From Neoscytalidium dimidiatum (taxonomy: Eukaryota > Ascomycota > Dothideomycetes > Botryosphaeriales > Botryosphaeriaceae): a stretch of DNA of 64,000 nt. The first letter of the stretch is position 1; every line of letters starts with the position of its first letter. The notes beneath the pieces were generated by a model. It had not been told where the DNA came from. It ran no database searches and worked only from the letters and a program-made list of their open reading frames with translations. A program made the translations under genes and the position numbers. This document shows positions 27,876 to 52,300 of the stretch, in pieces. The stretch lies in NCBI GenBank assembly GCA_037367355.1, contig CM074706.1, positions 1,736,001 through 1,800,000 on the forward strand, given 5' to 3'.

Positions 27876-28672
27876 ATGGATTACTCTATAGTTGTGCAAA
27901 CCGGCCCTGATGGATTTGCATCTGTTGTTGAGGGCAGCAATGTCATGTTCCGCCCAGGCGCATCACCTACTGACAATACAGATGGTAATAAGCAAGCACA
28001 AGACTGTTTGGTCGTATAATCATTTTTCTATAGGGCTCTTAGCAGCGTATCTTATTCATGAAGCTCATCAGTGGTCCCTATTGCTTCTCAGGACGGTATG
28101 TTGGGTGTCATCTGCCAGCGAAGTTTGAATTCTTATTATCGCAAAGGTTCTCATTAGGAATGTGTCTACATCGAGCTTCGAGGAAATTGAACTCGGACAG
28201 CAGCTTCCCTCTGGTAAGCTCTACGGGCCAACGTGCAGACATCTGTGTACCTCAAATCTGATTCCTCGTAGTACATGACTCTGCACTCAATTTAACAATC
28301 GTTTTCAATCCCAATACCGACCTTCCTCGCGTTATCCGCTCTCGTGAGGACCACCCGATCCATGGGCCCTCCACGCGCGACCTGATAGTCGATAACTATA
28401 CCTCGGTTGAAGGGGTAATGTTTCCCCGCCGCTTCAAGGAAGTTTACAGCATTGAGCACATCCTTGTCGACTACCTCGCGGACGAGGTCCTGGTGAACAC
28501 AGGAGTGGAAACCGGTTTCTTTGGCTCATGGACTTTCCGAGCCTCAAGAAATAGATGCACAGGAAATCGATACTTACTATGATTTCTCCGAAATTAGCAA
28601 GTTTGCATCTATCTACTCCTGGGTTCCCTATGCAAGAACATTGGCTAACATTTCCGCTAAGCGCATCCCTTG
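27876..28672 (+). pseudogene. Remnant of a metallo-beta-lactamase-family gene (N-terminal part only)
   Basis: Translated pieces in order and in different frames match the long N-terminal half of fungal MBL-fold proteins: DYSIVVQTGPDGFASVVEG from 27879, VLIRNVSTSSFEEIELGQQ near 28150, then after a plausible intron (GTAAGC..CGTAG, 28214-28270) VHDSALNLTIVFNP and DHPIHGPSTRDL, and VDYLADEVLVNTGVETGFFG. At about 28520 the frame shifts and continues as DFSEISKFASIYSW and ARTLANISAKRIP. A stop follows DCLVV at about 28018. The HxHxDH metal-binding core that should follow is absent, so no active enzyme can be made. The family assignment rests on remembered sequence pattern, not a search. Confidence 0.6.
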
Positions 28673-29426
28673 TCAAATATATATATATCAACTAGGCAAA
28701 ATATAATCGTGGTTTGCAGCATCGAAAAAGCTCGAAGTAGGACTTGCTTAAGACTACAAGATACTGTTTTCTTTTTTTTGTTTTAACAATCTTTCATCCT
28801 GCAGAGCTCGCTCGGACGCGCACCCCGTAGGCGTTTCAAACATGATGGTGTGTATTAGTCGGAGTGAACGTTCTTGATGTGGTGGCCTTGACTAAATCCT
28901 GAGGTTGCAATGCTGAAGGTCGGCGGCTGATTCTCCTAGAAAACGGAGTTGGAATTTCTGGCATTAAATTCTTTGAACGATGTTTTACTGTTTCAGACTT
29001 GTGTAAGGAAGTTACATGAGTGCAACAGGGGCTTGTTACCTTCCGCTAGCTCCCGATACAGTGTCCCATACGGAGTAGGAGTTTAGTCCGTGAAACAAGC
29101 ACAATTTTTCAGTGCTCGCACCTGGTGAATCGAATTTTTCCCCCAGGCGTCGAGATGATCGCTTTGTCAGTGGTGCACCGTGGAATAACCGAACACTTGG
29201 ATGAAGCTATGTAGTCCACTTGCTCAGCCCAACTATGAATCTGACAAAGGTTTGCAGAACGTAGCACGCGCGTGACCCATTGGAAAGTTGACATCTATGT
29301 TCTAGCCCTGCCCTTAGCTTGCGTGATTGTTTAGTATAAATTTCCTCGATGTTTCAATATTACTTCTGCACTGCACAGTCCTACAACATCAAATCACCTT
29401 AGCTTACGAGGAAGTATTAGTTCGAG
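28673..29426. other. Intergenic region with TATA box of the next SDR
   Basis: No gene is seen. A TATATATATAT run lies near 28678-28688. TATAAAT at 29335-29341 lies about 90 bp before the SDR ATG and is its likely core promoter. Confidence 0.5.
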
Positions 29427-30350
29427 ATGCTCTTCCGACAGGGCGAAGAATTCATTCCTGATGAGCATATACCAGACCTGCATGGACATGTCATTCTTGT
29501 CACCGGTGGAAACAGCGGTCTCGGAAAAGAGACCGTACGTCAACTTGCAAAGCATAAGCCATCGAAGCTTTACCTCGGAGCTCGCAACGAGGTCAAAGCT
29601 CAAGCCGCTATTGCCGACATCAAGAGACAGATACCGAATGCAAACATCCATTTTCTCGAACTGAATCTGGCCTCCTTTGCTTCGATAGCCACGGCGGCTC
29701 GAAAATTCCTCGTAGAGAATGACCGACTCGATATCCTGATCAACAACGCTGGGATCTTTGCACAATCTCCAGGTTTGACCGATGACGGCTACGAGATTCA
29801 ATTTGGAACCAACTACATGGGCCCAGCACTTTTAACCAAGCTGCTCCTGCCCTGTATGGAGACAACTGCCTCAGCACTAGTGAGCGACGTTCGAATTGTC
29901 ATGGTGAGCTCAAAATTGCACGCAGCGGCGCCCAAGCAGCGTCTACTACTCTCCGAAAACAAAACCAAGCTTGAGCGCATCACCACCGTCGCTCGATACG
30001 GTCAGTCCAAGCTTGCGCAAATATATTTTGCTCGGAGTCTGGCAAAACATTGTCCCTCAATAACATCTCTTGCCGTACATCCAGGCGTTGTCCGGACTAA
30101 CATCTTTGACGGGACCGGGCTGCTGGCGAGATTCTGCAGATTCATTGGACATTTCGCTTTTGTTGAAGTCGCGACAGGAGCATTGAACCAATTGTGGGCG
30201 ACAAGTGTTCCTGCTGGGATTGTGCTAAATGGTGCAATGCTCTACCCTGTTGGAAGAGAATACAAAGGAAGGGACAGTGCTGCGGATGATGATATGGCAG
30301 AGAAGTTGTGGAATTGGACCGAGGCAGAGCTAAAAGGAAAAGGCTTCTGA
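29427..30350 (+). CDS. Short-chain dehydrogenase/reductase (SDR), intact
   Basis: A single-exon SDR of 307 residues, likely NAD(P)-dependent; the substrate is unknown. The cofactor motif is TGGNSGLG (about residue 28), followed by NNAG in LDILINNAGIF, serine in MVSSKLHA, the YGQSK catalytic Tyr-Lys pair, and the VHPGVVRTNI segment after the active site. It resembles the retinol-dehydrogenase/WW-oxidoreductase-like fungal SDRs often found in metabolite clusters. It has a good TATA box upstream and no visible lesion, although its left neighbour is a pseudogene. No targeting signal is obvious. Confidence 0.9.
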   Translation: MLFRQGEEFIPDEHIPDLHGHVILVTGGNSGLGKETVRQLAKHKPSKLYLGARNEVKAQAAIADIKRQIPNANIHFLELNLASFASIATAARKFLVENDRLDILINNAGIFAQSPGLTDDGYEIQFGTNYMGPALLTKLLLPCMETTASALVSDVRIVMVSSKLHAAAPKQRLLLSENKTKLERITTVARYGQSKLAQIYFARSLAKHCPSITSLAVHPGVVRTNIFDGTGLLARFCRFIGHFAFVEVATGALNQLWATSVPAGIVLNGAMLYPVGREYKGRDSAADDDMAEKLWNWTEAELKGKGF

Positions 30351-31195
30351 GATCTAGCCTGGTGTCTGTGATGACTAAATTGGCGTCTGGTGTGTATGTG
30401 TAGCTACACAAGTGCCAGTACTCAGATTACTCAGGTCGTACTGAGTATAACCGGAGTGTCTTACTTTTTCTACTGACATTCAACTTCCTAAGTATGGACG
30501 CTAACTGATAAAGGTAGTACCAGCCATGTGCAGGGTCAAGCCAACGATACTACTCTCGTCGGGCGGAATGCGAAGCGATGATTACAAAGGGTGATTTGTG
30601 ACCAATCTAGAAACCTTCAGTGGCTATAAGGGAGTGATTTCGTGGAAACCTGACGCGGTCCGCTGATCATATACTGGGAGAGACATACACCAACAGCATA
30701 GCTCATTGGCATCACTTCTGACCGAGTATGAATATAGAAGATGTTCGAAAGATATCGAATATGTATCAACGTTCAACAGGTAGTCGAAGCGTCTTTGTTC
30801 CTAATGAATTCCTATCGTGTGTGATTAAGTCGATACTAGCAGTAAAATGGTAGCCTAACCTGCTCAAAATTCCCTTACAAGAGGGCTGTCCAGATCAATT
30901 GAGTCTTCCAGAATGACCGCAACCATCCACAAGAGTGTTGTCCACAATCCAATGGAAACGGAGGCAACATTTCTACCGTGACCTGCAGTAGTGCTAGTAC
31001 AGTAGGGATAGATCGGTGACAATGAGACTAGGAAAGGCATACATTCTCTTGGCAAGTTATTTCCACTCTCTCGACCTACTTTGGTATGTATTTGTTGTGC
31101 ATTGACATTTCTCTGGCCTTTTTTTTTCTGTTTTAGGGGTTGATGGTGTACGTCCACAGCAATTTTAAAAGGTGTATTGGAGGGTAAAACGACAG
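30351..31195. other. Intergenic region, no gene seen
   Basis: AT-rich DNA between the SDR and the 3' end of the zinc-cluster gene. No open frame with family features. Confidence 0.45.
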
Positions 31196-33113
31196 TTACA
31201 TAACAAAAATATTAGCCTGAGGTAGGAATGACGTCCATCTGCCACCGAAAGCCTTCCGTGCCCAGATACTACGTAGGTGCTTAAGCCCGCTTAGTACATT
31301 CACGAAGCCGCTCCTGATGAAATAGCGAAGAAACACATCTTCAAAGAAAGACTTGTGCTCGTCCAATATGCAATCCGAGGCCGCAATAAAAGTCGCCCAG
31401 ATGAGCACTTGTTCTCCTGGTGACCCTTTGGGGAAGGCCTCGAGGGTCTCTTTGAAACGCTGTACACGACTAATTGAGTCAGAGACTGGGTCGGGGATTT
31501 GGCCAACCGGTGAAGGAGGCAAGGCAGACTCCCGTAGCGCTTGCCGCAGGTATATCCCGCGAGCTTGTTGGACGAGGCTTATGACGAGCGGAATACCACC
31601 GGCTGCATCTGGCCGTTGCTGAGAGCAGTACATCATACATTCAAAACCTTGCATGACGTGTTTGGGTGATGAAATAGTCCTCAGTCCATTTTCCTCACTA
31701 ATGAATGGAGCGGCGTAAACGTTCATCCTAAAATTGAGTCAGATCTGTACTAAGTCTGTTGTAGTCTCCACCATTCCCGTAATGGAAGTTGAGAAATTGA
31801 CATGGCTTTCTCCCGCAGGGGTTTCCCCAATCGGCAGTCCACTGTAAATGTAGATCGGCAATCTTGAACTTACTTGTGAACCTGGCGTATGATGAACTCA
31901 GCCAAATCTCCTCTACCGAGGCCGCCCTCTCCTCCGATCACCTCGAATGCCGATTGGAGCATCCGGAATAAGATTGGGAAATCGTCAGAGCCGGTCACCA
32001 AGACAGCCACCAGAAGAACCAGAATAGTCATTAATACCAGATGTTGATCGAGCACTTTGTATTTCCCCAGCTCTTGCCGATGCCGAAGACCTGTAATGGT
32101 TTGTGCGTAGAGACTCTCACAGTCCGGGTATTGCTGGGACTTAACATGATAGTAGGAAGCGGATGTCATTTGCGCAGGGTGGCAGCCTTTGACTTTGGTC
32201 TCCCTGGCCAATGTATGGAAAGCTGAGACGGCTAGTACAGCGCTCAGCACTAGATCGTCGGTGTATGCAACGGGGAGGACAAGGTGACGCCAGCCATTGT
32301 GGAGACCATCGATTGCGACCATCTCTTTGGCGATGTTTTCTGAAACTGGTGGAAGATTCTTAGACACAACATAATCAAGGTGATCTGGAAGTCGAGTAGC
32401 TCACAGTTCAAGATCAGAATTCTTTTCCATAGAGGGAGATTTCCGGGAGTTGGCTGGAGAGCGGTAAACCGGAACATGTTTGCTGGTGCAACGACAATGC
32501 TTTCTTCGCCTGAGAAGTCTTCATCTTCCTCCGCTACATCCGGAACATGGTCCAATATTGTGAAAGGTGTTTCGGACACAGTGATTCCCTTTTTGATGAT
32601 GTATTCAGGAGCAGATCCAACATCAGCCTGAACCGTATCATCGGTTTGGTCAGTCTGGCCTCCAGCATGGTGAGGAAGAGATGGGTTTCGAGTTGACATG
32701 GGTCTTGCGGCATTGATATTCTGCGTTAGAGAACTGTCTGGAAGGCCTGATAAGCCATCGCCGACACTGGTTGTCCATGCTGAAGTCGCCAAATGCGGAG
32801 AAGTCTGTAGCTCAGCGGATAGCCGCTCTGCGTAGACAGATTGGGCAGTTTTGCCTACCCATTTGCCTCGAGCAGCAATGCCGTTGCTGAATCGATGGCG
32901 GATCCCGAGACCACTGCATTTTAAATGTTTGGAAACACACTTTGCACATTCTGGTTTGCCACGGTCACAATTGATCCGCCTCTGGGAGCACTCATAGCAG
33001 CCTGGCCAACAGCTCAGTGGTGTGGATCGTGGTAAGGGATCTCATGAGAGTTTGATGACGATATTTTACGTACCTTTCACCTTAGACCGATAAGGCCGAT
33101 GTCTTTGTGGCAT
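31196..33113 (-). CDS. Zn2Cys6 transcription factor (Fungal_trans_2 type)
   Basis: A pathway-type regulator of 546 residues in four exons: 33113-33074, 33001-32405, 32345-31874 and 31727-31196. The introns are 72, 59 and 146 bp. The zinc cluster is completed across the first intron: CYECSQRRINC then CAKCVSKHLKC at residues about 15-42. A Ser/Thr-rich linker follows, then the middle homology region (NFSENIAKEMVAIDGLHNGW, then VLPVA), which appears in frame only if the 59 bp intron (GTGAGC..CACCAG, 32346-32404) is removed. The C-terminus (FLRYFIRSGFVNVLSGLKHL) is intact. Without that intron the frame breaks, so this call decides whether the gene is alive. Its neighbour to the right is a FAD oxidoreductase on the same strand. 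Targets are unknown. Confidence 0.75.
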
Positions 33114-33782
33114 GATGACATTCCGAGCAAAGCTATGATCATCCAGTGCCGCTTGATGCACACGTTGGTACAGCAGGGTAGAAACCTGAGATAGGCAGCC
33201 TGGGAAGAAAAGTTTGGAAGCTTAAATGAGTGTCAGGGCTACGGTCGCAGCTCCTCTTCTGTGCGGAGCCGATTCAACGCCGGCAATTACCCATGCCAAG
33301 ACCTCACCCACTACTGGAGAAACTAGTCCTCAAGGGGAAGGTAAAATGAGCACTTGCGGTTTGTCCGTGACCAGTCTGGGCATTCTGCTTTCGGTCTTAT
33401 GCCAAATCTGCGCTACAAATGTCTCGCTTTTGTCACTAAACCGACGGAACTGATAGCGACAGATAGCAGTCATCCCCGGTACTGTGGAGACCAAATTATG
33501 CCACTACCCAACCGTTTCAGGCAGCGGGACACGATTAATCTGGCGTTTCACACACCAGCTTCTAGAGTCACGATGGAGGTGTCTGTTCAACGGGTAAGGT
33601 GGGACAATGCAACAAAGTCTCGAGCATCAGCTATTCAATTCGATTAAGCATAATAGGAGAAATGAGTAAGTTGATAAGTTGTCGATGCAAAATACGGTTG
33701 CTTAAGCCAGCGAACACTTCACATAACGCGGATCAATGCATGCTCGAGTCGGTGGCGCTCTTCCTTTCCAGATACCGGACGC
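33114..33782. other. Intergenic region
   Basis: The upstream region of the zinc-cluster gene and 3' side of the FAD oxidoreductase. No gene seen. Confidence 0.4.
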
Positions 33783-35174
33783 CTACAAATTCGGCTTCAA
33801 CATTCCGAACCTGATGTCCAGAGATTTCCTCAGTGTGCGAATGCGGTCCTGATTCACCATCATAGACCGCGGATATTCCTCAGGAACCTCCTCGCCAAGA
33901 ATCAGATACGCCGTCATTTCAGCGGCGCGGAATGCCTTGGTCATGCCAACGCCATTATAACCACCACATATCCACTGATGACTTCGGCCGGGGAAAGGTA
34001 GGCGGCCGACGAATGGCGCTGTATCTTGAGTGAAGCCCAAGATGCCCGACCAGGCATAGTCGACTCTGGCTGCAGCAACGGGGGAGGCTAAGGCGGCAAC
34101 CTCATGAGAGAAGCCACGCAAGTGTGACATGGCGCCCAGATCGGTAACGCTGTCATCTCCCGTGGCACGGCGCGCTAAATTGGCTCGGCCGACAACGACA
34201 TCCCCCGCCGTGCGTTGGATCAAGTAGTCGTAGTCCTTCTCGGCGTATCGTAGCCAGAAGGAGAATTTACTGTCGAAGCCGAAAACAGACTTGCCGTGGC
34301 CAGCAGCATAGTGCACCACGTTACCACGGACGGGAGAAATGAAGGGTTGTAATTCCGGAAGTAGGTGGCCGACCCAGCCATTGGTGGCGTGCACGACGTG
34401 CTTTGCCTTGATGCTACCACGATCGGTGTGCACGATGGCATATTCAAGGCCCACGGCATCTTCGATTGATTCGACCACAGTGTTGGTCTGGATATTCACC
34501 TTGCCTTCCTGAATCAGATTACCCATCAGCCCAGTAACGAGCTTGTAGGGCCATATTGACACCGCAGGGACAGTGATTGCACCAATACAGCGCTTTGACA
34601 GCTTCAGGCCATTCTGCAGATGGTCTTTGTCGGTATGAATGGTATAGCGTTCAGCAAGGTAAGGCGCATGAGAACGCATGTCCTCTAGGGCTGCCAATGC
34701 TTTGTCGAAGGTTCTTTGGTCGAAGTAGGCGTCGATGCCTCCAGTGTGCACGATGTCGCAGTCGACGCTGTTGTCCCAAGCGGCGCCTGTCATGATGTCC
34801 AGATGACTATGCTCGAACTCTGTCAATCGGATAGCCTCCTCGATTCCATACGACTTCTTTCGGTGTTCCCAAACTGCAAAGGCCATTGTCTTGATATGTC
34901 CGCCGTTACGCCCAGTGGCACCTGAGCACAGACTGCGCGCCTCGACTACGACTACTTGAAAGCTGGGACTTTGTTGAAGTAAGGTACGAGCTACGTTCGT
35001 CCCAGTCATGCCGGAACCTATGATGATGATGTCGACTGGATTGGTAGGCCAAGGCGATTGGTGATTGGCAAGCGGGTGTGGTTCTGAATGCCAGAAAGAC
35101 TTCGTGGGGTTGGGCACCGGCAATCCTGGGTCCACGACGCCAGTTTCATGCGTACCTTCCGGTGAGCCGGACAT
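33783..35174 (-). CDS. FAD-dependent oxidoreductase (DAO family)
   Basis: A single-exon flavoprotein of 463 residues of the D-amino-acid-oxidase/PuuB-like fold, expected to oxidise an amine or amino acid with FAD. The dinucleotide-binding motif is DIIIIGSGMTGTNVA near residue 48, followed by VVVVEARSLCSGATGRNGGH, which is typical of this family. The C-terminal FAD-contact region has YAWSGILGFTQDTAPFVGRL and GGYNGVGMTKAF. The start at ATG 35174 is the first in-frame ATG of the open frame and leaves a normal N-terminal length. There is no signal peptide. It is intact, and transcribed towards the regulator gene on the same strand, which it may depend on (inference). Confidence 0.88.
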   Translation of the reverse strand: MSGSPEGTHETGVVDPGLPVPNPTKSFWHSEPHPLANHQSPWPTNPVDIIIIGSGMTGTNVARTLLQQSPSFQVVVVEARSLCSGATGRNGGHIKTMAFAVWEHRKKSYGIEEAIRLTEFEHSHLDIMTGAAWDNSVDCDIVHTGGIDAYFDQRTFDKALAALEDMRSHAPYLAERYTIHTDKDHLQNGLKLSKRCIGAITVPAVSIWPYKLVTGLMGNLIQEGKVNIQTNTVVESIEDAVGLEYAIVHTDRGSIKAKHVVHATNGWVGHLLPELQPFISPVRGNVVHYAAGHGKSVFGFDSKFSFWLRYAEKDYDYLIQRTAGDVVVGRANLARRATGDDSVTDLGAMSHLRGFSHEVAALASPVAAARVDYAWSGILGFTQDTAPFVGRLPFPGRSHQWICGGYNGVGMTKAFRAAEMTAYLILGEEVPEEYPRSMMVNQDRIRTLRKSLDIRFGMLKPNL

Positions 35175-37357: not shown

Positions 37358-37846
37358 TCAGAGGACGACACAGCCACTGTTTGTCTTCGCCACAACAGTC
37401 AATACCGTGTCCATCTTCTCGCGTATGCTTACGATCGCCTGCGGTACCACGCCGGGGGCACCGGACTGAACGAGAGGGAATTCTTCTTCGACAACGCGAG
37501 TCGCTTGCTGCAAACGAGACACCTCATACTCGATCGTACTGACTATGCTCCACCTGAGCAGGCCCGGGGACAGAAAAGACGAAGGCGAATCTGTAAAGCC
37601 CCCTAAGCGGCCGGGTATTTTGGCGAAGGCGTCGAGAATGGAAGTGCGTTCCTGATCGGAGACAGATTTAGATGAGAACGAGGTTCTAGGAGCGGCCGAC
37701 GCAGAGGTAGAACGGGAAGTGTCTGTATTGTTCGGGGTGGACGATTGGCCGTCGGGAATGAGATGGACCGGCGTTGAATCAGTAAAGGCGATGCGGCCGA
37801 CGAGCGCGTAACACGAACATGCGGCACTTTCTGCGGTTATGAACAA
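37358..37846 (-). pseudogene. Unassigned coding fragment
   Basis: An open frame of about 162 codons without an ATG at its head. It contains CSCYALVGRIAF, a Ser/Thr-rich linker, then a helical segment (LLRWSIVSTIEYEVSRLQQA ... VVPQAIVSIREKMDTVL). The layout recalls the C-terminal AflR-type regulatory domain of some zinc-cluster regulators, but the match is weak and I assign no function. Flanking sequence has no zinc cluster. Confidence 0.25.
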
Positions 37847-37914
37847 GCTACGGCCCTTTTCTTATATCAGAGCGTCGTCGATGAGCGAGAGAAATTATTT
37901 CTAAAATTCGAGCA

Positions 37915-39517
37915 TCAGCATGACTGGTACGCACAGCAGTAGACACGAAGTGTCGGAAGAAAATGTTTTGAGCAGGGGGGACCGATGCCTAAAGCGAGAT
38001 CCTTGGGTATTGAGGTACACAACAAGATCGACGTCTTGATGGGTATCTGAGAAGAAAGGATCGGGGATTTCAAAGAACGGAGCAGTGAGATTGCCACCGT
38101 CGTGGAGTGTATCTCGTACACGAGGTGCTCGTGGGGAGCAGGCTCAGTATTATGTTCAACGCGCTCATCATTACAGCACCATCCTTTTCCTCTTTCCCCA
38201 ATTGCATCCTGCATGGTAACATCAACGTTGGGATACCAAGCCCAAAGCTCAAGCCCGGAAGGATCTTGTAGCCGTACGCTCTGACGTCAAACGCTTCGTG
38301 ATCCAAATCCAGAATGCATAGCAGCGCTGCACCGAGCGCCTGTAGCGCGGCATTGTCGATTAGTATGAGCAACACTAAGCTGACATTTTGGCTGCAAATA
38401 AATACGAAGGGAGTAGTCTCACGCCGGCAGATGTCGCAGAAAGCCCATACAGAATCTGGGAGCGCCGCGGTAAAGTAATAATAGCCGTAAAGAAGGTAGC
38501 CTCCAAGAAACATGCGGATCTAGTGAATTACTAGCAATAGCTTAACGGAGTGCCTCAAGAGCTAACGCGAACTCATAGGAGAAACGATACGACCGTCGGA
38601 CTCTGCAGCAACCGCAAGGGAAACAGAGCCTCAGGTCCTTATCCTCCCCTCGAGCGTAGCCAACTTCCACTCCTATGTGAATAAAATCACGAGGCTAACT
38701 TTCGCTGTGATTAGTACACCGATGATGATGGTGCTGATCCACGTATAAGTCAACCTGCTAGGTTGAAGTCCGTAGACGAGGAGAATGGCAACCGCGACGG
38801 AGAACAGTGCACCAGTATAATCTGTCCTTACCAAATACTTCACGTTGATTGGTTTCTGCGGATGGGGCAGCGAGACGCCCAGTCGTACTGCGGAGACTGC
38901 TGCTGCTGGGGCGTTCAAAATAAACATCCACTACCAAGCTCCTTCATCTCCAAGCACACCCCCCAGAGCAGGCCAAGCACTTTTATGATTGCGAAGGTTA
39001 TGCTGGCTACACCTGAGCATATTCCCATCCATCGCATTGGGCACACCGATATGATACACACAAAGAGCAGGCCGAAGATCACTGAGCCGCCCGGTCCTTG
39101 AAATGCTCGGAATATGATCAAAATGGCCAAATTTTGCTGGCGGCACACAGTCCACTGAGAAGTGCGAAGTCGGCGAGCCCGAAGAGAAGCGCATTGCGCT
39201 GCGTGAACATGTCGGAAAGCTTGGCGAAGACCAGTAGGAAGCGGGAGTAGGTGACGAGGTAGGCTGCGACGATCCATTCAGAGCATGGCATGCCATAAAA
39301 GTGAGCGGCTAGGGTAGAGAGACTAGTTGCGATGATGATGTTCTCAGGGGCGAACAGAAGAGACCAATGCAGAGGCTTTGGAGATGTCAGTTGACGGTCG
39401 ACATGCGTAGAAGAACATCATTACTACCCGAGGACAGCGGAGTCAAGATGCTAGCCATGCAGAGCATTAGGTGGATCTGGAAGCTTCTAGATTCGGCTTC
39501 TGTATCTGGTTGGCTCA
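37915..39517 (-). pseudogene. Broken DHA-type MFS drug/metabolite exporter
   Basis: Transporter homology is spread over at least four frames. The start MSQPDTEAESRSF (39517) with a first membrane helix is followed, out of frame, by PENIIIATSLSTLAAHFYGM and SEWIVAAYLVTYSRFLL, then LIIFRAFQGPGGSVIFGL and VCPMRWMGICSG, then FILNAPAAAVSAVRLGVSLP, VKYLVRTDYTGALF, and finally GGYLLYGYYYFTAALP and YGYKILPGLSFGLGIPTLML. In-frame stops fall between the pieces, for example after AASKI near 39130. The order and spacing fit a full-length 14-helix-type exporter that has suffered several small indels. It cannot encode a full protein. Confidence 0.7.
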
Positions 39518-40219: not shown

Positions 40220-41955
40220 CTAGCTCCGACCCATGGCTTTCTCAATGAGTGCCAGCGCTGCCATAACCTTCACATCGAAATTGCGTCGCCCGACTATCTC
40301 CAGACTTATGGGAGCTCCGACGTAGCTCTCTGGTGAATAGAGGTCATGATTGAATCTGTCCTGTTCGTTGAGGGCGACGTAGCTTACGTCGCGTTTGTCC
40401 AGAAGTGGATCAATGTGGGTCACTGGGAATACTGCAGCTGGATAATCGAGTAAGCTCCAATGGGCGGTATATGGCCAATAAAGCGCACATTCGTGAGGAG
40501 GAGCAGCACCAGGAACGGCAGGGCAGAGGATTACATCAACTTCCTGTCCATCTTCGTCTGCAGTGGAAGACCAATGTGCAGCATATTTGCTCCATATTCA
40601 TCTCGCTCATGGCACAACTTTCAACAGTCAGTCAATGTTCTTCGCAGTGGCAGGCCAACTTACATTCCATAGCTCTTGAACAGAAAGCTTCTTCACTCCC
40701 GGCTGATTGATGGTCCATTCAGTCAATGGGAGGACAGACTCACCGCTTTACTGAATCACTCTGAGAGTATCTTCACCACCATCGGGGAAATACAAGCGAG
40801 AAATGAGGTTCCACGCCCGCTCATGTTCCAGAGATATCCAATCCACCACTTGCATCCCCACTTGACGACAGGCCTCGGAAACATCTTTAAGGGCGCGGAT
40901 CATGGGTGGATGCGGTCGGATAACCCCGTCATCCCACTGTATTGCAATTTTCAAGGGTTTGTCGAAATTCACCGGCGTCCACTGTTTTGGGAACAGCCAA
41001 GGGTCGAAATGCCACAGCTTAGTCTTCAATACCAAGTCCATGAAAAAGTTGATTGTATCGCGGCTGCGGGTCAGCGGCCCAAATGTGGGCATCACCGTCT
41101 CGTTTGCAAGCATAGTGCACTTCATGCCACTCGGTGGTAGTCGCCGCGATGTAGGCTTGAATCCGTAGACACCACAGTTGGAGGCCGGGCCGCGTACACT
41201 GCCTCCGATATCACCACCCATGCCGCAAACACTTCCTCCAAATCCGAGCAGCGCTCCCTGGCCTCCAGTAGATCCTCCAGGAGTAAGGTTTCGATTCCAT
41301 GGATTGACGGTCCGGCCTGTGATGTTGTTGTTGCACTCCAAATGCATCGTTCTTTGCGGCTCTGTTGTGTGGACGTAGAAAACACAGCCGGCATCCCAAA
41401 GAATATCGTTGATCGGATTTGGGTTACTAGGGTGGCCAATCCAAGCCACATAGGAAGCATGACAAGGCTTCCCACGCATCTCGTGTTGCTGCTTGATTGA
41501 TATTGGGAGGCCGTGAAGAGGGCCAGCTGGAGAGGGGAGCGGGTCCAAGTAACGAGCTCTTTCAATGGCTTCGTCCCACATTAGTTCCGTAACACAGTTG
41601 ACCCTTCGATTGTTAGCATGCGTTGTCTACTCCACGTGCGTTTGCGAATTCCCACGGTATATTGAGCGAGTGCGGCACGTCTAAGGAATGACCGGGTCAA
41701 TTCCTCAGAGGTAATGTCTTTCCTTTTGAACGTGTTGAGTAGTTGGATGGCGTCGTAATTCTGCGTAAGCTCGTACTCGCGTTCAGTCAATAACTGCTTC
41801 GGGAGCTCTTGTGAGCTTAGGGGTAGCGGGTCCGGGAGGGGTCCAATCGGTGGTTTGACTTTTGAGAGCGTTGCATCGCGGTAATCACGCGCCGATTGCG
41901 CCTTTTCCTGCTGGCTGTGCCTAAAAGGACTGCGTACTGGCCATATCAGTAGCAT
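40220..41955 (-). pseudogene. Amidase-signature enzyme, pseudogene
   Basis: This is nearly full length, with recognisable amidase-signature features: N-terminal region (ARDYRDATLSKVKPPIGPLP, REYELTQNYDAIQLL), the catalytic Lys in LPISIKQQ, the two serines in PGGSTGGQGALL and GGDIGGSVRGPA, and a C-terminal block (ESYVGAPISLEIVGRRN, ALALIEKAMGRS). Lesions: an in-frame TAA at 40748-40750 between DTLRVIQ and SGESVLPLTEW, and a frame break near 41590-41650 where a former intron junction (AALAQ / NCVTELMWDEA) no longer joins in phase. The last exon also lies in a different frame. When intact it would hydrolyse a C-N amide bond; the substrate is unknown. All catalytic-triad residues survive, so decay may be recent. 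Confidence 0.75.
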
Positions 41956-42272
41956 GTCGATTGGACGCTGACAAGGCGGGGAATGATTCCCGGTAATGGC
42001 GGGCTGCGCAGAGTTGCGGGGATGGGGACTCAAAAGTGGGCAGACTCCGTGCAGGTGCCGTTCCGGCTCCGAGAATGTTATCATTCTAATAAGCAACAGA
42101 TGATAGGCGGAGTGCGGAGATGTCGTTCTGAGATAAGCATCAATGGAGGGGTATCGATGTGCATACTAGGTAAGCCACTGCCCGAGGCCACGGCCGAGGG
42201 CCGCTGACCCCCAACGTTCTCTCTATCATCAACCCACGAATACGAAACGAAAAACACATACCCAGTGAGACA

Positions 42273-44314
42273 ATGCTGGAATACAGCAACGGTACTCGAA
42301 TTCGAGGTAAGAATGCGACCAGACCTTTGCCGCCATCCTACTTGTTAAACATATGCAGGAGGCACTCGAGCCGCGCACGCCTGCTCGAGCTGCAATGCCC
42401 GAAAGATAAGATGCGACCTTTTTGCACGCGGAGGTCCTCCTTGCACTCGCTGTGAAGATGCGGCGCTCCAATGCAATATGATGACACGACGTCGGAGGCC
42501 TATTCGAGCTGTTGAAACAATTCCAAGGGAAACAAGCGAGTAAGACCCGGATTACCTTTGCTTTCTGAATTTAAGCTGAAAGATTATCGCGTAAGACAAG
42601 CGGAGGAAAGTATACAAACAATTGCATCTCCCTCCTCCGCTAGTAATCCGGATTCAGCGGAATTTTCCTCTCCTTGGGCCCTGGCGATCAACCTTGCCGC
42701 GTTGATGTGAACGGATTGCATGATATTTCAAAACAGAAAACTATACTGGTTGATTTCCTTTCGCAAGATTTCACGAACTCCGATATCAGTGATTACCAGC
42801 CAACCTTCGTTGACGACTACGCAAATATCACAAGACTGCTTGGTCGTGAATTTGGCCGCGGTTTCCAAGAAGGCGTGTATCACTACAGAGATGCCCCGTT
42901 CGTAGAAAGATCGTACGAGGGCATACCAAAGACTACTACGACGGCCGAGAGGTTGGTTCTGGACCGCTATGGAGCTTTCGTGCTTCCAAGCCCAAATATC
43001 ACAGACGCATTCACCACGGCCTTCTTTGATCGTGTCTTCCCTTCCATGCCTATTCTGGACCGATCTTCGTTCCTCAAACATCTTCACGGTAGGGGTGAAG
43101 ACCAAAATAGGCCGTCACTCCTCCTTATTCAGAGCATCATCCTAGCTGGCTCAACTGTATACCATCATCCCGACATACAGTTATTGCCTGACCAAGTCGC
43201 ACCCAGACTTCATGCAAGAGCAAAGGCCCTCATAGACACCAAATTTGAACAGGATCGTCTGGTTCTGGCCCAAGCACATCTGCTCATTAGTTCTTTTACC
43301 ACTGACAGTTGCGATGACACCATCCATAACATGTGGCTCTCACTTGGGACGGCGGTTCGGATTGCCCAGGGAATCGGCATGCATCGTGATCTTGGTCGAG
43401 CCAGTGCAAATGCTTCCATGCGACGTCAGTGGAGACGGATGTGGTGGACTCTGTTCATTCACGACACGATATGCTCTTTCGAATGGGGAAGGCCAAGGGC
43501 AATCCATCTCGCAGATACAGATGTCCCCCCTCCAAACGAAACTGACTTCCGTTCGGACGATCCGGGTAGTCTGCCTTGCACTGAACATATCCAATTCTTC
43601 CTTAGTCTCAATAAGCTCTGCTTCATCATTGCAGATTGGCTGGACTTGCTGCGGCCTCGGGGCACGAATTGGGGTCGTGGGAATCCTAATCCTTATGAAG
43701 ACCAGGTAATTTCGATAAGGAAAGCTTTGGATGATTGGACAGCGGATCTACCTCTGTCAATGGTACCTCCACGCGACTTCAAGGGTTTTACTCTCTGGAC
43801 GGCTACGCTACATATTGCGTTCTATAGCGTCATACTTCGACTTTATACCTCCCTTTCTAGCGATTCAGTTGCTCAGACAGTACATGAAGCTGCCCTCAAA
43901 ATTCTGCTCATCGGCCTTGATTTGGCCGCCAACGACCTCTTGGGATCTCTTTGGGGATTTGGAATCCACCAGTTCGACCTATCAATGGGAAAACATGCGC
44001 GAGAGACAAGATCCGAAGATCGAAATCTTGCAACCGTCGCTTTCGAAAGCTTACGCCAAGGCATTCCCTTGATGCAACAGCTTTGCCAGCGGAGTTCTAC
44101 GGCGGCGCAGGGTTTGGCATTCTACGAAGCCCTCCTTGAGAAACGAGAGATATTAGAGGGCAGTGAGAAGCTACATCAGGATCAGACGTTGTGCGTGGAC
44201 TCCGATTCAACATTTTCTGTCAGCAGAGCAAGCATGTCTTGGGCCATAGACTTGAGCAGCAACAGTTTAGCAGATTCGGGCGTCTTAGACTGGAATGCGC
44301 AGTGGGCTTGCTGA
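42273..44314 (+). CDS. Zn2Cys6 transcription factor (fungal-specific TF domain)
   Basis: A regulator of 623 residues in three exons: 42273-42306, 42359-42539 and 42658-44314, with introns of 52 and 118 bp. The zinc cluster CSSCNARKIRCD ... CTRCEDAALQC lies at residues about 19-48, followed by a basic TRRRRPIR stretch. The fungal-specific middle domain is well preserved (FFDRVFPSMPILDRSSF, WLSLGTAVRIAQGIGMHRD, RRMWWTLFIHDT, AIHLADTDVPPP). The second intron is the least certain: the chosen acceptor (GATTCAG, 42657) gives a continuous frame, but another frame across 42601-42710 also reads like protein, so an extra exon or a lesion there is possible. It lies between two pseudogenes. Targets are unknown. 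Confidence 0.75.
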
Positions 44315-44467
44315 ATTTTTTGCCCCTATCTAGTGGAGCAGTCATTGCTTGCCGGAAGAGCGATGAAAACAAAAAAAGAAAACAAAGTCAGACGCTGAAG
44401 GCTCTGCTATGGCTATGAAATGAATGAGACTTTGCCTCCACATCTTTTCCCCCTCTGATTCCACCGT

Positions 44468-45300
44468 CTACTCAGTCGCCACACCGGGAATAACAACCCC
44501 ACCCTCAACATGGCGAGGTACGATGACGTCTGCTTCCAGAAAATAATTTGTATCTTTCACAAAGAGCCAAGTGACACTTAAAAGGCTGGTCAATCCCACC
44601 ACGTAAAGAACCAACTGAACAATAGCCTGAGTGCGATAGGAGACCCCTTCCGAATCTAAGACGAAGAAAATGCACATGCCTAGGCTGACAGTCCCTTTGA
44701 AAGCGCCGGCGTGGCATGCACACAACTCTGGATGGCGATAAGAGCACCCACGGTGCTCCCAGCTGAAGTCAGGACCCATTGCCACGTGATGAACTATTCG
44801 ATTAGCTTTGCTAGAGCTGTGACAAGGCCTCTGAGATGGATTACCATGGCCTTTTTGGATTCTTCAGCATATGCGAATTGAATAAAGCCAGATGAGGTCT
44901 ACAGGCAAGCAGCGCAGAATCCCAAGATGAAATCTGACAGCAACGGAAACCACTGATGGCCAGTTCTGTCGTGATACCAAAGCCCACCTGCGTACAGAGG
45001 ATATCCGATGGCGCCGATCAAGATGGTCTTTTTGGGTTTTAGAAAGTTCAGAATTGAGCCTGCCATCCACCCAAACAAGGTGTAAGGTCCATACAGAATA
45101 GAGTGTGTGATCAATGCAACACGCTGCGCGGAAGGTTTCCCGCCGCCAGCGCCCAGTTCGGTTAGGGCCAGGTAAATCCCTGGGAGGCAGAAAAGGATGC
45201 AGCACATTATGAAATTTTGGTTAAATGGGCGATTGAGTCGATATTTGCGTTTGCTGTCTAGGCTGAAAATTGAGGTGATCATATTGCAGAAGCCGAAATC
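44468..45300 (-). pseudogene. UNC93-like MFS transporter, pseudogene
   Basis: The pieces match fungal UNC93-like (DUF895) transporters: FCLPGIYLALTELGAGGGK, LYGPYTLFGWMAGSILNFLK, IGAIGYPLYAGGLWYHDRTG and FPLLSDFILGFCAACL in one frame. Then come FIQFAYAEESKKAM, TWQWVLTSAGSTVGALIAI and a third frame with KGTVSLGMCIFFVLDSEGV and VTWLFVKDTNYFLEADV. At least two frameshifts separate these pieces (about 44700 and about 44770-44870). The DNA is otherwise colinear with a complete C-terminal half. It would have been a multi-helix membrane protein. Confidence 0.65.
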
Positions 45301-45639: not shown

Positions 45640-46647
45640 ATGGTCGCCAACGTGGACAGCCATTTGACGTCCATCAACGCCAACTTTGCTCCTCCAAGCT
45701 TGCGCTACGACGACGTTTATATCTCGTACGACCGTATCAATGAGGCTCACATACCCAACAAATGGCCATCTCGAAAACACATACCGGTTCCTGAATACAA
45801 GGCCGACTGCTCGCCGGCCGAAGTCGTGGCCGGGCTCAAGGTCACAGGCGGTGTCGTCGTGCGAAGGATTCTATCCAAAGATGCAGTTGAACGTATGGAA
45901 CGAGACACCCGGTCTTACCTTGAAGCCGATGTCCCATGGGAGGCAGGAAATGATTTTTTCCCGCCATCTACACGCCGCGCTTTCGGGTTGGCCGGCAAGT
46001 CGGATACCGCAGCAACGGAATTGATCGGCAACAGCCTATACCAAGCTGTGTGTCGCCAGTTCCTCTCGACTAAGGCTTACAAGTGGTATGGAAATCGCAG
46101 TGAGATCAACATCAGTCCTCCCCAAGTCAATAATACGATCGCGTTCTCGGTGCGGCCCGGAAACAGCTTCAATCAACCACTGCATCGAGACGACGATATC
46201 CAATACCCTGATCGATAGCGGGTAGATGTCTATCCGGAGAGGACGAACTCAAGGGAAAGGGAATACGGAATTGGCTTCTTCGTTGCGGGGCCCAAGACAA
46301 CGAAAGCGAACGGGGCAACCCGTTTCATCCCCGGGAGCCACTTGGAAGCAACTGAGCAATCACCGGACGAAGCCTTCGCGCAGTATGCGGAGCTAGACGT
46401 TGGCGACGGATTCATAATGCTAAGCAGCTGCTACCATGGTGGGAGTGCTAATGCCACTAAGGATGAAGAGCGTCTTCTCTTTAGTTGCTTCATAACGAGG
46501 GGTTACTTGAGGCAGGAGGAGAATCAGTATCTTGCAGTCTCCGTAGAGAGGGCGAAGCAACTTCCCCTCAAAATTCAAAAACTGTTGGGCTATACGATCA
46601 GCGAGCTAAGTACACATGAACTCTGGAACCGTTCAACACATCTCTGA
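45640..46647 (+). pseudogene. Phytanoyl-CoA-dioxygenase-like 2OG/Fe(II) enzyme with one in-frame stop
   Basis: The frame runs from ATG 45640 to 46647 with a single TAG at 46216-46218, directly after the iron-binding His-x-Asp (QPLHRDDDIQYPDR). Reading resumes in the same frame with EREYGIGFFVAGPKTTKANG, ATRFIPGSH and the distal iron ligand region SSCYHGGSAN, ending LSTHELWNRSTHL. Family members use Fe(II) and 2-oxoglutarate to hydroxylate, desaturate or form endoperoxides; several act in fungal metabolite clusters. Both metal-ligand regions and the Arg expected to bind 2-oxoglutarate are present, but on opposite sides of the stop. The C-terminus is shorter than I would expect. A single stop and no frameshift mean it could be a recent mutation, an assembly error, or a case of readthrough. 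Confidence 0.75.
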
Positions 46648-47954: not shown

Positions 47955-50192
47955 ATGGCTCTGCGACTATGGACTCGGAATGCTCAACCAAAAACTCGGA
48001 AGCAATATGTAAAGAAGCATTCAGTCAGCGACCTTCGAGAAGTGCAGGCTGAGGCACTTAGATCGAGCTCTGTCGAATCAAGCAGAGGTTATAGCCCACG
48101 CGGTCAATCGGTCAGCGATGTTTTGGTCGTTGGAGCCGGTCCGGCCGGCTTGATGCTCGCGTAAGTAGATGGCATAGTACGTAAATATATTCTAACAATT
48201 GACGTAGAGTCAATTTGGCTCGCTTTGGAGTGAAGGTCGATATTGTCGATACGAGGTCGCATCGAACTCTAAGTGGTAGAGCAGATGGTCTTCAGCCAAA
48301 GTCGATCGAAACTTTACGCCAAATGAGACTAGCCGATCATGTCATAAGCAAAGGTGTCAAAGTATATGACGTCTGTTTCTGGGTAAGATACACAACTTTC
48401 CCTACCTGTTGTCTGTCTTTCAGAGTTGGAACTAAGTCGACCCAGAGATCCACGTTAAGCGAGACGATGCATAGAGTCAGGCAGGAGACACACTATCCGC
48501 CAGATCGTGTGGATCTTCTAGACCCGTACACTCTTCTTGCCCACCAGGGAATACTTGAGGAAGTTTTTGTTAAAGACTTGAAAGAGCATGGGGTTGAGAT
48601 TCGAAGGGATACCGCCTTTATGGACTACACCTACACCAGCAAGGTAGCGCCCGTACAGGTCACTTGCATCACCAACGATGCAAGTCAAACCTTTTCTACA
48701 AACTTTGTGGTGGGATGCGACGGTGCGCACTCAACCGTGCGGAAGGCAATTACTGGAGCACAACTTCTTGGGACCACCTCCGAGGCAGTCTGGGGCCTTA
48801 TAGATGGCCACATTGACACTGACTTTCCCGACACCAGCTCAAAGGCTATTGTGTACTCCGAGGAGGCTGGTTCTGTGATGATCATACCCCGTGAGCGCAA
48901 TCTGACGCGGATCTACGTTGAGCTGAAGCCCGAGTCAAGAGAAAGCACGTCAAAAGATGAACTGAATCTCCAGCTTGTGATGCACAGGGCGCGGGAAATC
49001 GTCTATCCATTTCGTTTGAAATGGAAATCCGTAGGTATGATTTTTCGGACTTTGAAGCATCTGGCTTGACTGACTGTATGAAGAATGGTTCGGCAAATAT
49101 CAAGTCGGGCAAAGAGTGTCAACTAAGTTCTCTGACGATGGAGGCCGAGTTTTCATCTGTGGAGATGTTAGTAACTCGTACCTTTTGAATATATATGCTC
49201 ACTAAGTGGACAGGCAAGCCACACACATTCTCCAAAAGCTGCCCAAGGCATGTAAGTACTACTGAGAATGAACTGAACCACTTCCCTCCCTTTTGCTAAT
49301 GTCTCGTAGGAATACCTCGATGCATGACTCCTGGAATCTTGCTTGGAAGTTGAACCTTGTTGTTCGCAAGTTAGCAAAGCCAGAGCTTCTGAAGACATAT
49401 GAGAGCGAGCGCCGTAAAGTTGCAAAAGAACTGATACGTTTCGACTTGGGACACGCAACGGCGTTTGAAGAAGGCGACTCAAATACCCTTGCCAATGACA
49501 TCATAACTCATAGTCGGTTCATTTCCGGTGTGGGGGCTGAGTACGAGTCCAACATGTTAAACCAGCCGACAGAGAGAATGGGCGGCGGCGATCTGAAGCC
49601 AGGATGCCTGCCGTCACCTGCGAAAGTCACGCGGCTTGCCGACTCGAAAACAGTTGACCTCCAGCTGGATATACCAATGCTGGGACAGTTTCGCATATAC
49701 TTCTTCTGCAACAGTGTTCTGGCCAGCCAACCATTCGTCAACACCGTCTGTAATTCTGCTGAGAGCCAGGAGTCGTTCGTGGGCCGCATGGGTGCTGCCA
49801 CCAACGCAAGCTACACACTACAACCGCCAATGGCGGCTCCGAGTGACAAGATTATTCATCCAGAGCGCTATACAAAGAGTTCATGTCTCTTTACCTGGGC
49901 TCTTGTATCGAGCACGGCAGAATTTGACTTTGCAGATTTACCTCAGACATTACGGGACTCCACTTGGACTATCTACCTGGACAACATCCCATGGGCTGAT
50001 ACCCGCGCCAGTAGCTGCATGGAGAAGTGGCTTGGGGGCCTCCAAGGTGAAGAAGTGGCTATCGCTATCATACGACCGGATGGCTATGTTGGATCAATTC
50101 GTATGTGGGAGGATGGTACAAAGAGGAATGGGCGAGAAGCTGTGAAATGGATGGACGAGTACTTTGAAGCATTCTTAACAGCTACTGCCTAG
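47955..50192 (+). CDS. FAD-dependent aromatic monooxygenase (phenol hydroxylase family), intact
   Basis: A class A flavin monooxygenase of 657 residues that would hydroxylate a phenolic or related ring using NADPH and O2. Six exons: 47955-48160, 48208-48382, 48446-49034, 49084-49166, 49214-49251 and 49310-50192. All five introns (47, 63, 49, 47 and 58 bp) have GT-AG ends and keep phase. Motifs: GxGxxG as DVLVVGAGPAGLMLA (about residue 60), DG motif FVVGCDGAHSTVRKAI, and GD motif FICGDASHTHSPKAAQGM, which is formed only by joining three exons, then NLAWKLNLV. The C-terminal thioredoxin-like dimer domain (TWTIYLDNIPWAD, IIRPDGYVGSI) is complete. The second intron uses the acceptor at 48445; a shorter one would create a stop. 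It sits among pseudogenes but shows no lesion. Confidence 0.85.
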
Positions 50193-50544
50193 AGTGAGTG
50201 TTTTCAATGCTGTAATGGACTAGGAAAATTCGTGCATTTCATTATAGAATACAGAAATACCCCAGAGTATGCTACACTTCCCCCAAAGGTGACATCAGCG
50301 CGCCAAAGAACAAGCCATAGAAAAAAGTATGCAACCACAACTACCGACCATTAACCCAGCCAATGATCCATCTTGACTTTACCGGAAATTCCTCTCCAAA
50401 AGGTGTCAAGACAAACGTACCTTGCCGCCTGCAATCAGGTTTGGCAGAAGCCGTAGATAAATTAAAGATTTGTTCCGGGAGGGTACTGGGCAGCAGTTGG
50501 CCAGGTATTACCATGCAAGTGTGTTACAAAATCAATTCATGCTA
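50193..50544. other. Spacer between monooxygenase and P450 remnant
   Basis: A 3' region of the monooxygenase. No gene seen. Confidence 0.45.
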
Positions 50545-51554
50545 GTTTAAAACGACCTCCACAAGCGTCTTTGGAGAGGTCAGTCCAACAAACTCCTCAA
50601 ATTCCAGCGTTTCATCCTTGATAGGTCCGGGGCGAAGTTGAGAACTACTTGGCTTATTGCAACTTTTAATTCGATTAATGCTAAGCTTTCTCATGTTCTC
50701 TCTAGAGAAACCTTTTCATCTAAACAAAACTTACTTTTGGCCAGCACTTGACTTCGTTCCACGGGAGAACACGAGGTACCTATCCATAGTAGCAGTATCT
50801 TTGACAAGCCATCCTTCGGGCTTGAATGTTTCAGGATCAGGATATACAGTCGGATCTGCGCAGTGAAAAAATTGGGCACCTAACACAATAGTCGGGAAAG
50901 TTGGGAGTCAGATCGTAACAATCTTTGGAAATACATCAAAGCTGTCGGAAAGCTCGCGCTTGAACTGCTCAGCCTCAAACGCCCCGTCGTCTGAGCCGTG
51001 ACCGAAGCACGCTGCTATCTCTAGCGCCAGGCACTGCGTGGCGAGCCACAGTGGCAAAGCCTTCACCGTGTCAACATGCTCTCTTATCCTTGCCAACCAC
51101 TTTACGATGTTGGGGTAGAACACCCTTTGCTGCATGCCGATAATGTTGCTGTATGAGAAGGCGTGAGCCATGAGTCATTTCGCTGCAGAGTGAGCCTACT
51201 TGCTCATCTCGGAGAAGACGGTGCCATGCGGATTGTCGAATGCCGGCGTGAAAATACTCGACCTTGACGAACTTCGTATATTGCCCATATACTGCGTTGG
51301 TGAAGGCGTCAATTAAGCTGATTGAGAGCTCGTTGGGTGCGACACGGATAACGGGACCATTCGTTTGGTGCCAGCATTGATGACGGCATACGCATAACTG
51401 CTCAAGTCTGCCCCGAAGAGCCAGAACCGCGTTACGTCTGCGAGCCTGGGACCTGGCAATCTTGGAGAGAGGATGAATAAAGCATTATAGATAGCTTGAA
51501 AAAGGTTAAAATTATAAGCGAAGCCAAAAAGACAGCGATGGTGAGGTTAGCCAT
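50545..51554 (-). pseudogene. Cytochrome P450, truncated pseudogene
   Basis: In order: an N-terminal membrane anchor (MANLTIAVFLASLIILTFF, from 51554), a one-base frame break near 51495, LPGPRLADVTRFWLF, GPVIRVAPNELSISLID, TKFVKVEYFHAGI, then in another frame AHAFSYSNIIGMQQRV and FKRELSDSFDVFPKIVTI, which stops. It then jumps directly to FHCADPTVYPDPETFKPEGW and FSRGTKSSAGQK, and ends with ETLEFEEFVGLTSPKTLVEV. The I-helix (AGxxT) and ExxR region is missing, apparently as a deletion near 50880-50905. The haem-ligand cysteine position reads Ser (FSRGTKSSAG for FSxGxRxCxG). The pattern fits the trichodiene-oxygenase-like fungal P450s. It cannot be functional. Confidence 0.75.
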
Positions 51555-51881
51555 GGCTTGGGAAACTGGAGTGGCAATGCTTTCACCGTGGCGCGGGCGT
51601 AAATTATGTAGCGGACAGTTCTCATGTTTAAGCGGGTACTGTCGTTTCAGGAGACAGGTTGGGACACAACGATGCGCCTCTTCCTTTGCATTTCCGGTGA
51701 TTAGCGACCGACTCCGCTTGAAACAGTAGGGGGGAGAGGTGGGCTACTCGGAAAAGCCGCACACGTCTAGTCATGTATGCGGGATAATATTTCCCAGTGT
51801 GGATCTGTATATAGTCTCTTAAGAATTCGAAATGTGGGCATACCGTTTCACTAAGCCGACCAAATCAGGAGAAGATAATGT

Positions 51882-51891
51882 TATATATAAG
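51882..51891 (+). promoter_or_regulatory. TATA box of the oxidase remnant
   Basis: TATATATAAG lies about 85-95 bp before the ATG at 51976, so the remnant still has a core promoter. Confidence 0.45.
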
Positions 51892-51975
51892 TCACCAGAC
51901 ACCGCAGGACATGGAGGCTAAAGAACAGAATCCTTAACGTAACATAACAGTCTACATCTTGGATCTACTCTAACA

Positions 51976-52300
51976 ATGTCCGAACGGATTTCTCCTGGGT
52001 TACCAATTATATGGCACAGTAGCAGTACCGAATCCGAATATGAAGTGGCCCGCTACTGTGTCTTCAACGCGTTGTGCCCCGGTCGATTTCCCTACGCAGC
52101 CGTCAAGCCACGTACCATAGAACATATGCGAGAAGTTGTATGGCTAGCAAAGAAATCTGGGTGTCGTGTATTAATCCGGTCTGGTGGTCACAGCTAGGAG
52201 TAATAGGAATTCGAGACGACTGTATCTGTTAGAGAATCACGTGTTGAGCTACAGTATAGTCTTAGCTGCGTGCCAGCCGTATGCATAGAGAGGGGCACCT
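51976..52300 (+). pseudogene. Berberine-bridge-type FAD oxidase, 5' remnant
   Basis: The first 73 codons match the start of a PCMH-type FAD-linked oxidase: FNALCPGRFPYAAVKPRTIE, MREVVWLAKKSGCRVLIRSGGHS. The frame ends in TAG exactly where homologues have Trp (SGGHSW), consistent with TGG to TAG. Beyond it, eroded similarity continues (GIRDDC, then ENHVLSYS in another frame) for about 80 bp and then fades. The histidine of the GGHS motif is the covalent FAD attachment site in this family. The rest of the roughly 500-residue enzyme is absent. Confidence 0.6.

What the first reader, a model, noticed from the sequence alone, without database searches (positions are those of the whole stretch)
27876..52300. 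A decaying specialised-metabolism or catabolic gene cluster with its regulators still intact
Seven broken genes (MBL-family, MFS exporter, amidase, UNC93-like transporter, PhyH dioxygenase, P450, BBE-type oxidase) are interleaved with five apparently intact ones (SDR, two zinc-cluster regulators, DAO-type oxidoreductase, FAD monooxygenase). The lesions are small indels and single stops in otherwise colinear genes, which suggests recent loss of one pathway rather than random debris. The family mix is that of a fungal metabolite cluster. Sister strains or species may carry the working version.
Basis: partly seen in the sequence, partly recalled or inferred. Interest (0 to 1): 0.75.

Follow-up and report, generated by a model that had tools for sequence, protein, structure and literature searches.

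The report
Piecemeal decay of fungal gene block
A stretch of a fungal chromosome holds seven broken and five whole genes; three of them are found side by side in other fungi, but the damage ranges from one stop to near-total loss, so this looks like an ordinary piecemeal decay of dispensable genes rather than one recent loss.

Summary
The description of the damage fits only two genes: amidase (two frame changes, one stop) and PhyH dioxygenase (one in-frame stop). The UNC93-like transporter lacks 211 codons; the P450 is shortened and has serine for its heme cysteine; the BBE oxidase is a 73-codon stub; the MBL gene lacks both ends; the MFS gene is split over frames.

A conserved nucleus is real: regulator TF2 and UNC93 have consecutive locus tags in two other fungi and apparently share a contig in five more; TF2 and PhyH have consecutive tags in Coleophoma. 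Full-length UNC93 orthologues exist in Neofusicoccum parvum and Phyllosticta. The other nine genes could not be tested for linkage (three protein searches in all).

Lesions differ strongly in degree. UNC93 and TF2 evolved faster than their sister sequences (5-12-fold and 1.6-4-fold), PhyH not clearly; the difference between genes is suggestive only (p about 0.1). Best reading: a patchily distributed, probably catabolic or detoxifying module dying piece by piece beside other relics. No RIP signal. Known kind, modest interest.

The parts
27876..28650 (+). MBL-type relic: middle part of a gene, a frame change near 28.53 kb, both ends missing
   Evidence: 52% match (query residues 4-88) to C9:870210-870470; six-frame comparison by eye with that fuller relative L037; no Pfam match of its own; L037 has a weak Lactamase_B match
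29427..30350 (+). SDR oxidoreductase, intact, 307 aa
   Evidence: adh_short E 5.7e-25; best NCBIfam model NF004846, below its cut-off
31196..33113 (-). TF1, Zn2Cys6 regulator with Fungal_trans_2 domain, intact; introns 33002-33073, 32346-32404, 31728-31873
   Evidence: introns chosen by frame and splice motifs, no orthologue at hand to check them
33783..35174 (-). DAO-family FAD oxidoreductase, intact, 463 aa
   Evidence: PF01266 E 2.5e-41 over profile 1-353 of 353; nearest solved structure glycine oxidase, E 1e-7
37900..39384 (-). MFS exporter relic, split over several frames with stops
   Evidence: MFS_1 E 0.0042, below cut-off, on 39121-39384; six-frame reading by eye
40223..41970 (-). amidase, broken: two frame changes (about 41.60 and 40.58 kb) and one in-frame stop (40748-40750); probable introns 41604-41655, 40602-40663
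   Evidence: PF01425 E 8.4e-66 on the main piece; alignment to an intact 45% paralogue; PDB kin fatty acid amide hydrolases
42273..44314 (+). TF2, Zn2Cys6 regulator with Fungal_trans domain, intact, 623 aa; introns 42307-42358, 42540-42657
44468..45282 (-). UNC93-like transporter, broken: in-frame stops at 44899-44901 and 44468-44470, 211 codons missing at about 44734, frame changes
   Evidence: alignment to P0155 and P0156; 87% identity over 127 residues to N. parvum
45640..46647 (+). PhyH-type Fe(II)/2-oxoglutarate dioxygenase, broken by one in-frame stop at 46216-46218, otherwise colinear
47955..50192 (+). phenol-hydroxylase-type FAD monooxygenase, intact, 657 aa; introns 48161-48207, 48383-48445, 49035-49083, 49167-49213, 49252-49309
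50634..51599 (-). cytochrome P450 relic: several frames, stops, shortened, heme cysteine replaced by serine
   Evidence: PF00067 E 2.4e-5 on 50734-50907
51976..52194 (+). BBE-type FAD oxidase relic: N-terminal 73 codons only
   Evidence: PF01565 E 2.8e-4, below cut-off, profile 2-35 of 139

Best explanation
The block is a composite. Its nucleus is a small co-inherited module, TF2 + UNC93-like transporter + PhyH dioxygenase, probably with the divergently placed amidase and the FAD monooxygenase, that is patchily present in Pezizomycotina. In this Botryosphaeriales-like lineage the module is decaying gene by gene: the transporter is the most damaged (deletion, stops, fast divergence), the amidase less, PhyH least (one stop), while TF2 and the FAD monooxygenase are still open. 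Round it lie more eroded relics (MBL, MFS, P450, BBE) and intact genes (SDR, TF1, DAO) whose membership is untested and which I take to be separate. Likely function, inferred only: uptake of an aromatic or acyl amide, hydrolysis by the amidase, and oxidation by PhyH and the FAD monooxygenase, under TF2, i.e. catabolism or detoxification. Shown: gene states, linkage of TF2 with UNC93 and of TF2 with PhyH elsewhere, faster evolution of UNC93 and TF2 here. Inferred: membership of amidase and FAD monooxygenase, separateness of the rest, order of loss, function.
For: Coleophoma cylindrospora BP6252_13604 (PhyH) and 13605 (TF2). An amidase and a 65% FAD-monooxygenase paralogue also lie divergently, about 1 kb or less apart, on contig C10 of the same genome. 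Unequal damage. Changes on the window lineage only against N. parvum lineage only: UNC93 27:5, 12:1 and 15:3, TF2 61:27 and 24:6, by choice of outside rows (each p below 0.01); PhyH against its nearest kin 13:8, p 0.38. Tree lengths from the shared fork: UNC93 0.23 against 0.024 (N. parvum), TF2 0.52 against 0.19 (N. parvum) or 0.45 against 0.28 (P0034/P0036), PhyH 0.24 against 0.16-0.22. No close second copy in the genome: best other match 36% (PhyH), 39% (UNC93), 27% (TF2).
Against: In 3 of the 10 species with both a TF2-group row and an UNC93 row the two are on different contigs (Rhinocladiella similis, R. mackenziei; N. parvum, where the rows may come from different assemblies). PhyH was not listed for N. 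parvum, B. dothidea or Phyllosticta, so it may be a later addition or lost there. Amidase, FAD monooxygenase and the seven other genes were not tested in other fungi. The C10 amidase is not the nearest paralogue of the window's (pieces 30-55%; others in the genome score higher, 39 matches), it was aligned only from residue 85 and with an unlikely one-codon exon, so the pairing on C10 may be incidental. UNC93 and PhyH rates do not differ significantly (27:5 against 13:8, p 0.10; UNC93 against TF2 p 0.11; TF2 against PhyH p 0.60), they were measured against different kin, and before the stop PhyH is 7:2. Against B. dothidea UNC93 the excess is only 2.6-fold. No housekeeping baseline for this lineage.
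Confidence: 0.63

Rival explanations
1. One cluster of about twelve genes was lost recently as a unit; the differences in decay are chance.
For: Physical clustering; family mix common in fungal clusters (recalled); three genes shown to be linked elsewhere; the rate contrast between genes is not significant; linkage of the other nine is untested.
Against: Wide spread of damage: near-complete loss (BBE, MBL, P450) beside a single stop (PhyH) and five open genes; UNC93 clearly faster than its sister, which speaks against a very recent loss of that gene.
Confidence: 0.18
2. No cluster here: an accessory, lower-G+C stretch collects dispensable genes, which decay independently; the neighbourhood of TF2, UNC93 and PhyH is only a leftover.
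For: G+C falls from about 0.54-0.60 to 0.47-0.51 from about 24 kb rightwards; relics in very different states; contig C12 ends 169 kb beyond the window.
Against: Consecutive locus tags or shared contigs for TF2-UNC93 in 7 of 10 species and for TF2-PhyH in one are hard to get by chance.
Confidence: 0.1
3. The light lesions (PhyH stop, amidase) are assembly or base-calling errors and these two genes work.
For: PhyH is otherwise colinear and evolves at a near-normal rate; no reads were available.
Against: 2,596 codons of five intact genes in the same stretch have no lesion, though these were grouped because they are open; amidase needs three separate lesions.
Confidence: 0.09

Closest known systems
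Decayed bikaverin cluster of Botrytis cinerea (PMC3538735, passages seen)
   Same: A cluster in a plant-associated ascomycete with stop mutations and small deletions in some members, and strains in which a working version survives.
   Different: There the product and backbone synthase are known and six genes form one proven cluster; here product and backbone are unknown and only three genes are shown to be linked.
Conserved TF2-UNC93 gene pair in Scytalidium, Meristemomyces, Phyllosticta and others
   Same: Related genes, with consecutive locus tags in two species.
   Different: Long predicted proteins in those species, broken transporter here; no paper held the five terms searched.
Fungal phenol 2-monooxygenases (PDB 1FOH, 1PN0)
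   Same: FAD_binding_3 plus Phe_hydrox_dim architecture.
   Different: Substrate unknown; only local sequence matches.
Fungal Fe(II)/2-oxoglutarate dioxygenases NvfE, SwnH1, SwnH2, PrhA (PDB)
   Same: Family of the intact PhyH relative P0006.
   Different: Best matches belong to various biosynthetic pathways, so the family does not tell catabolism from synthesis.

Membership tests
Fungal metabolic gene cluster (co-inherited, neighbouring genes of one pathway) | Members neighbour each other in distant species | tested here: met
Fungal metabolic gene cluster (co-inherited, neighbouring genes of one pathway) | All twelve genes of 27.9-52.3 kb belong | not tested
Fungal metabolic gene cluster (co-inherited, neighbouring genes of one pathway) | Genes act in one pathway | not testable with these tools
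   Needs expression, knock-out or enzyme assays
Biosynthetic (secondary metabolite) cluster | Backbone enzyme (PKS, NRPS, terpene cyclase, DMATS) present | tested here: inconclusive
   None noticed among listed ORFs and Pfam results on selected pieces; no dedicated search was run and only 20 kb beyond the right end was fetched
Pseudogene set of one recent loss | Similar age of lesions across members | tested here: inconclusive
   Degree of damage differs strongly; rate contrasts between genes are p 0.10-0.60
RIP-inactivated genes | TpA/ApT above about 0.89 and (CpA+TpG)/(ApC+GpT) below about 1.03 (limits recalled) | tested here: not met
   0 of 21 bins reach either limit
Functional cytochrome P450 | Cysteine in the heme-binding loop (recalled signature) | tested here: not met
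   Serine in the aligned place

The most novel reading that the evidence does not exclude
TF2-UNC93-PhyH, with amidase and FAD monooxygenase, is an undescribed, patchily distributed and perhaps horizontally moving fungal catabolic or detoxification cassette; here it is caught in stepwise loss, transporter first and regulator last, so that its dead, half-dead and live states can be compared across Botryosphaeriales.
Probability: 0.33. Interest if true: 0.5.

Novelty: new member of a known kind. Interest (0 to 1): 0.3.

Why it matters
It shows that a neat-looking 'dying cluster' may be a small real module plus other relics. If the module's function were found, the order of loss (transporter before enzymes before regulator) could be tested across related fungi that hold it whole.

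Tried and rejected
RIP as the cause of decay: rejected. 'Introns mistaken for lesions': introns explain the breaks in the genes already called intact but do not remove the stops and frame changes of PhyH, amidase and UNC93. A whole second copy of the block in the genome: not seen in the own-genome searches for eight of the twelve genes; only FAD monooxygenase (65%) and an amidase recur together on C10. A frame break in TF1 at about 32.39 kb was suspected and then explained by a GT-AG intron; no orthologue was at hand to prove it. MFS and MBL had only weak or partial templates in the genome. Rfam gave nothing at gathering thresholds. G+C by codon position was run in the wrong frame for some genes and is not used. 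The claim that rates alone prove unequal ages of loss was dropped after a test; the confidence of the best explanation was lowered from a first 0.72 to 0.63 and that of the single-cluster rival raised from 0.12 to 0.18 for this reason and because nine genes are untested. Literature on the gene combination: 0 papers for the terms; one loosely related paper (listing only).
Full report
What was checked. The window is C12:1736001-1800000 of a 43.76-Mb genome in 40 contigs. The nearest named relatives of two window genes are in Botryosphaeriales (order recalled): TF2 69% to Neofusicoccum parvum and 58-65% to four Phyllosticta rows, UNC93 87% to N. parvum, 86% to Botryosphaeria dothidea, 80-82% to two Phyllosticta rows, each over about 38-41% of a padded query. 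The species itself was not identified.

Gene states. Three of the five 'intact' genes have introns that a quick reading could take for lesions. With GT-AG introns they give complete frames: TF1 546 aa, FAD monooxygenase 657 aa, TF2 623 aa; Pfam then finds FAD_binding_3 (3-348 of 349) plus Phe_hydrox_dim in the one and Zn_clus plus a fungal regulator domain in each of the others. DAO covers its profile from 1 to 353 of 353 and SDR is a single frame. The intact list is therefore right. The TF1 introns rest on splice motifs and frame alone.

Lesions. I wrote a spliced protein-to-DNA aligner that scores introns, frame changes and stops. PhyH: one in-frame stop against 4 of 4 relatives; one of them (P0005) also drew two doubtful introns and a frame change, which the other three do not need. 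In the alignment 7 of 7 relatives have a residue in that column. Amidase: frame change at about 41.60 kb, stop at 40748-40750, frame change at about 40.58 kb against a 45% paralogue; with low penalties two more weak frame changes appear in the poorly conserved N-terminus and an odd intron at the C-terminus, while with high penalties the 40.58-kb change was absorbed by a different intron. UNC93: stop at 44899-44901, loss of 211 codons at 44734, frame changes, second stop at 44468-44470 against N. parvum P0155; the first stop, the deletion and one frame change recur against Phyllosticta P0156. B. dothidea P0154 is itself short (370 aa) and aligned differently, so its state is unclear. P450, BBE, MBL and MFS are far more eroded.

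Is it one cluster? Locus tags and longest-contig lengths in the three protein searches allow a linkage test. Each row stands for a cluster of sequences at 90% identity, so name and contig are those of one source. Of the 120 TF2 rows listed (of 253), the first 27 (P0033-P0059, at least 386 bits; the next has 179) form the TF2 group; the UNC93 search listed 36 rows. Ten species have rows in both, leaving out Fusarium oxysporum, whose three rows bear different tag prefixes and share no contig. On long contigs, as in Phyllosticta, a shared contig is weak evidence; on the 106- and 166-kb contigs of A. californicus and C. rhizophaga it is stronger. PhyH (32 rows) shares a species with the TF2 group once, in C. 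cylindrospora, and there the tags are consecutive. For amidase and FAD monooxygenase the only hint is their pairing on contig C10, and there the FAD monooxygenase was read by eye, the amidase model is partial, and other amidases of the genome are closer to the window's. DAO, SDR, TF1, MBL, MFS, P450 and BBE were not tested in other fungi.

Is the loss recent and synchronous? Changes on the window lineage only against the N. parvum lineage only: UNC93 27:5 (265 columns), 12:1 (156, with B. dothidea) and 15:3 (264, far outgroup); TF2 61:27 (564) and 24:6 (562). Each departs from equality (p 0.0001 to 0.008). In the trees, from the shared fork, UNC93 is 0.23 against 0.024 for N. parvum and 0.21 against 0.08 for B. 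dothidea (fork support 0.59); TF2 is 0.52 against 0.19 for N. parvum and 0.45 against 0.28 for P0034/P0036 (TF2 by its last exon only). PhyH has no Botryosphaeriales relative in the listing; against P0001, P0002 and P0004 it is 0.24 against 0.16-0.22, is 1-3 points lower in identity to 5 of 5 outside relatives, and has 7:2 lineage-only changes before the stop and 6:6 after it (together 13:8, p 0.38). Between genes the contrasts are not significant: UNC93 against PhyH p 0.10, UNC93 against TF2 p 0.11, TF2 against PhyH p 0.60. At columns invariant elsewhere the window departs in 3 of 111 (TF2), 3 of 53 (UNC93) and 4 of 99 (PhyH), with controls at 0-1 (7 rows), 0-1 (6 rows) and 0-5 (6 rows); close relatives in the set favour some controls. 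So UNC93, and to a lesser degree TF2, have evolved under less constraint here, PhyH not demonstrably; that the genes died at different times rests mainly on the unequal damage. No housekeeping baseline was available, so part of the excess may belong to the lineage.

Function. The intact PhyH relative P0006 resembles fungal Fe(II)/2-oxoglutarate dioxygenases, the amidase fatty acid amide hydrolases, the FAD monooxygenase phenol hydroxylase, DAO glycine and sarcosine oxidases. With a transporter and a regulator but no backbone enzyme noticed, catabolism or detoxification of an amide or aromatic compound is the likelier reading; this is inference.

Precedent. Partly decayed clusters are known: in the two sequenced B. 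cinerea strains named in the paper bik2 and bik3 carry stops and small deletions and bik1 is absent, while the three pink strains sequenced keep all six genes (PMC3538735, passages seen). That the bikaverin regulators outlast the enzymes is recalled from other work and was not checked. PMC13403568 (abstract and outline seen) reports gene-family contractions in Botryosphaeriaceae.

Noticed in passing
G000:C10:1728519-1734462 (L030 3519-9462): A 65% FAD-monooxygenase paralogue and an amidase lie divergently, about 1 kb or less apart. Same two families as in the window; the amidase there is not the window copy's nearest paralogue.
   Followed up: partly
window 24000-64000: G+C drops from about 0.54-0.60 to 0.47-0.51 and is 0.49-0.53 in the next 20 kb, without RIP signature.
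   Followed up: partly
window 37361-37861 (-): A 167-codon open frame next to the MFS relic with no Pfam match; may be a further relic.
   Followed up: no
window 60665-62038 (+) and G000:C12:1800137-1800835 (-): An MFS transporter spread over several frames or exons near the right end and a P450 match just outside it; not examined for lesions.
   Followed up: no
P0154 (Botryosphaeria dothidea UNC93): The listed protein is 370 aa against about 490 in relatives and lacks conserved stretches; the gene may be decaying there too, or the model is wrong.
   Followed up: no
TF2 tree: Meristemomyces (Dothideomycetes, class recalled) does not group with the Botryosphaeriales rows, and Scytalidium groups with Fonsecaea; patchy history, horizontal transfer or repeated loss.
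   Followed up: no
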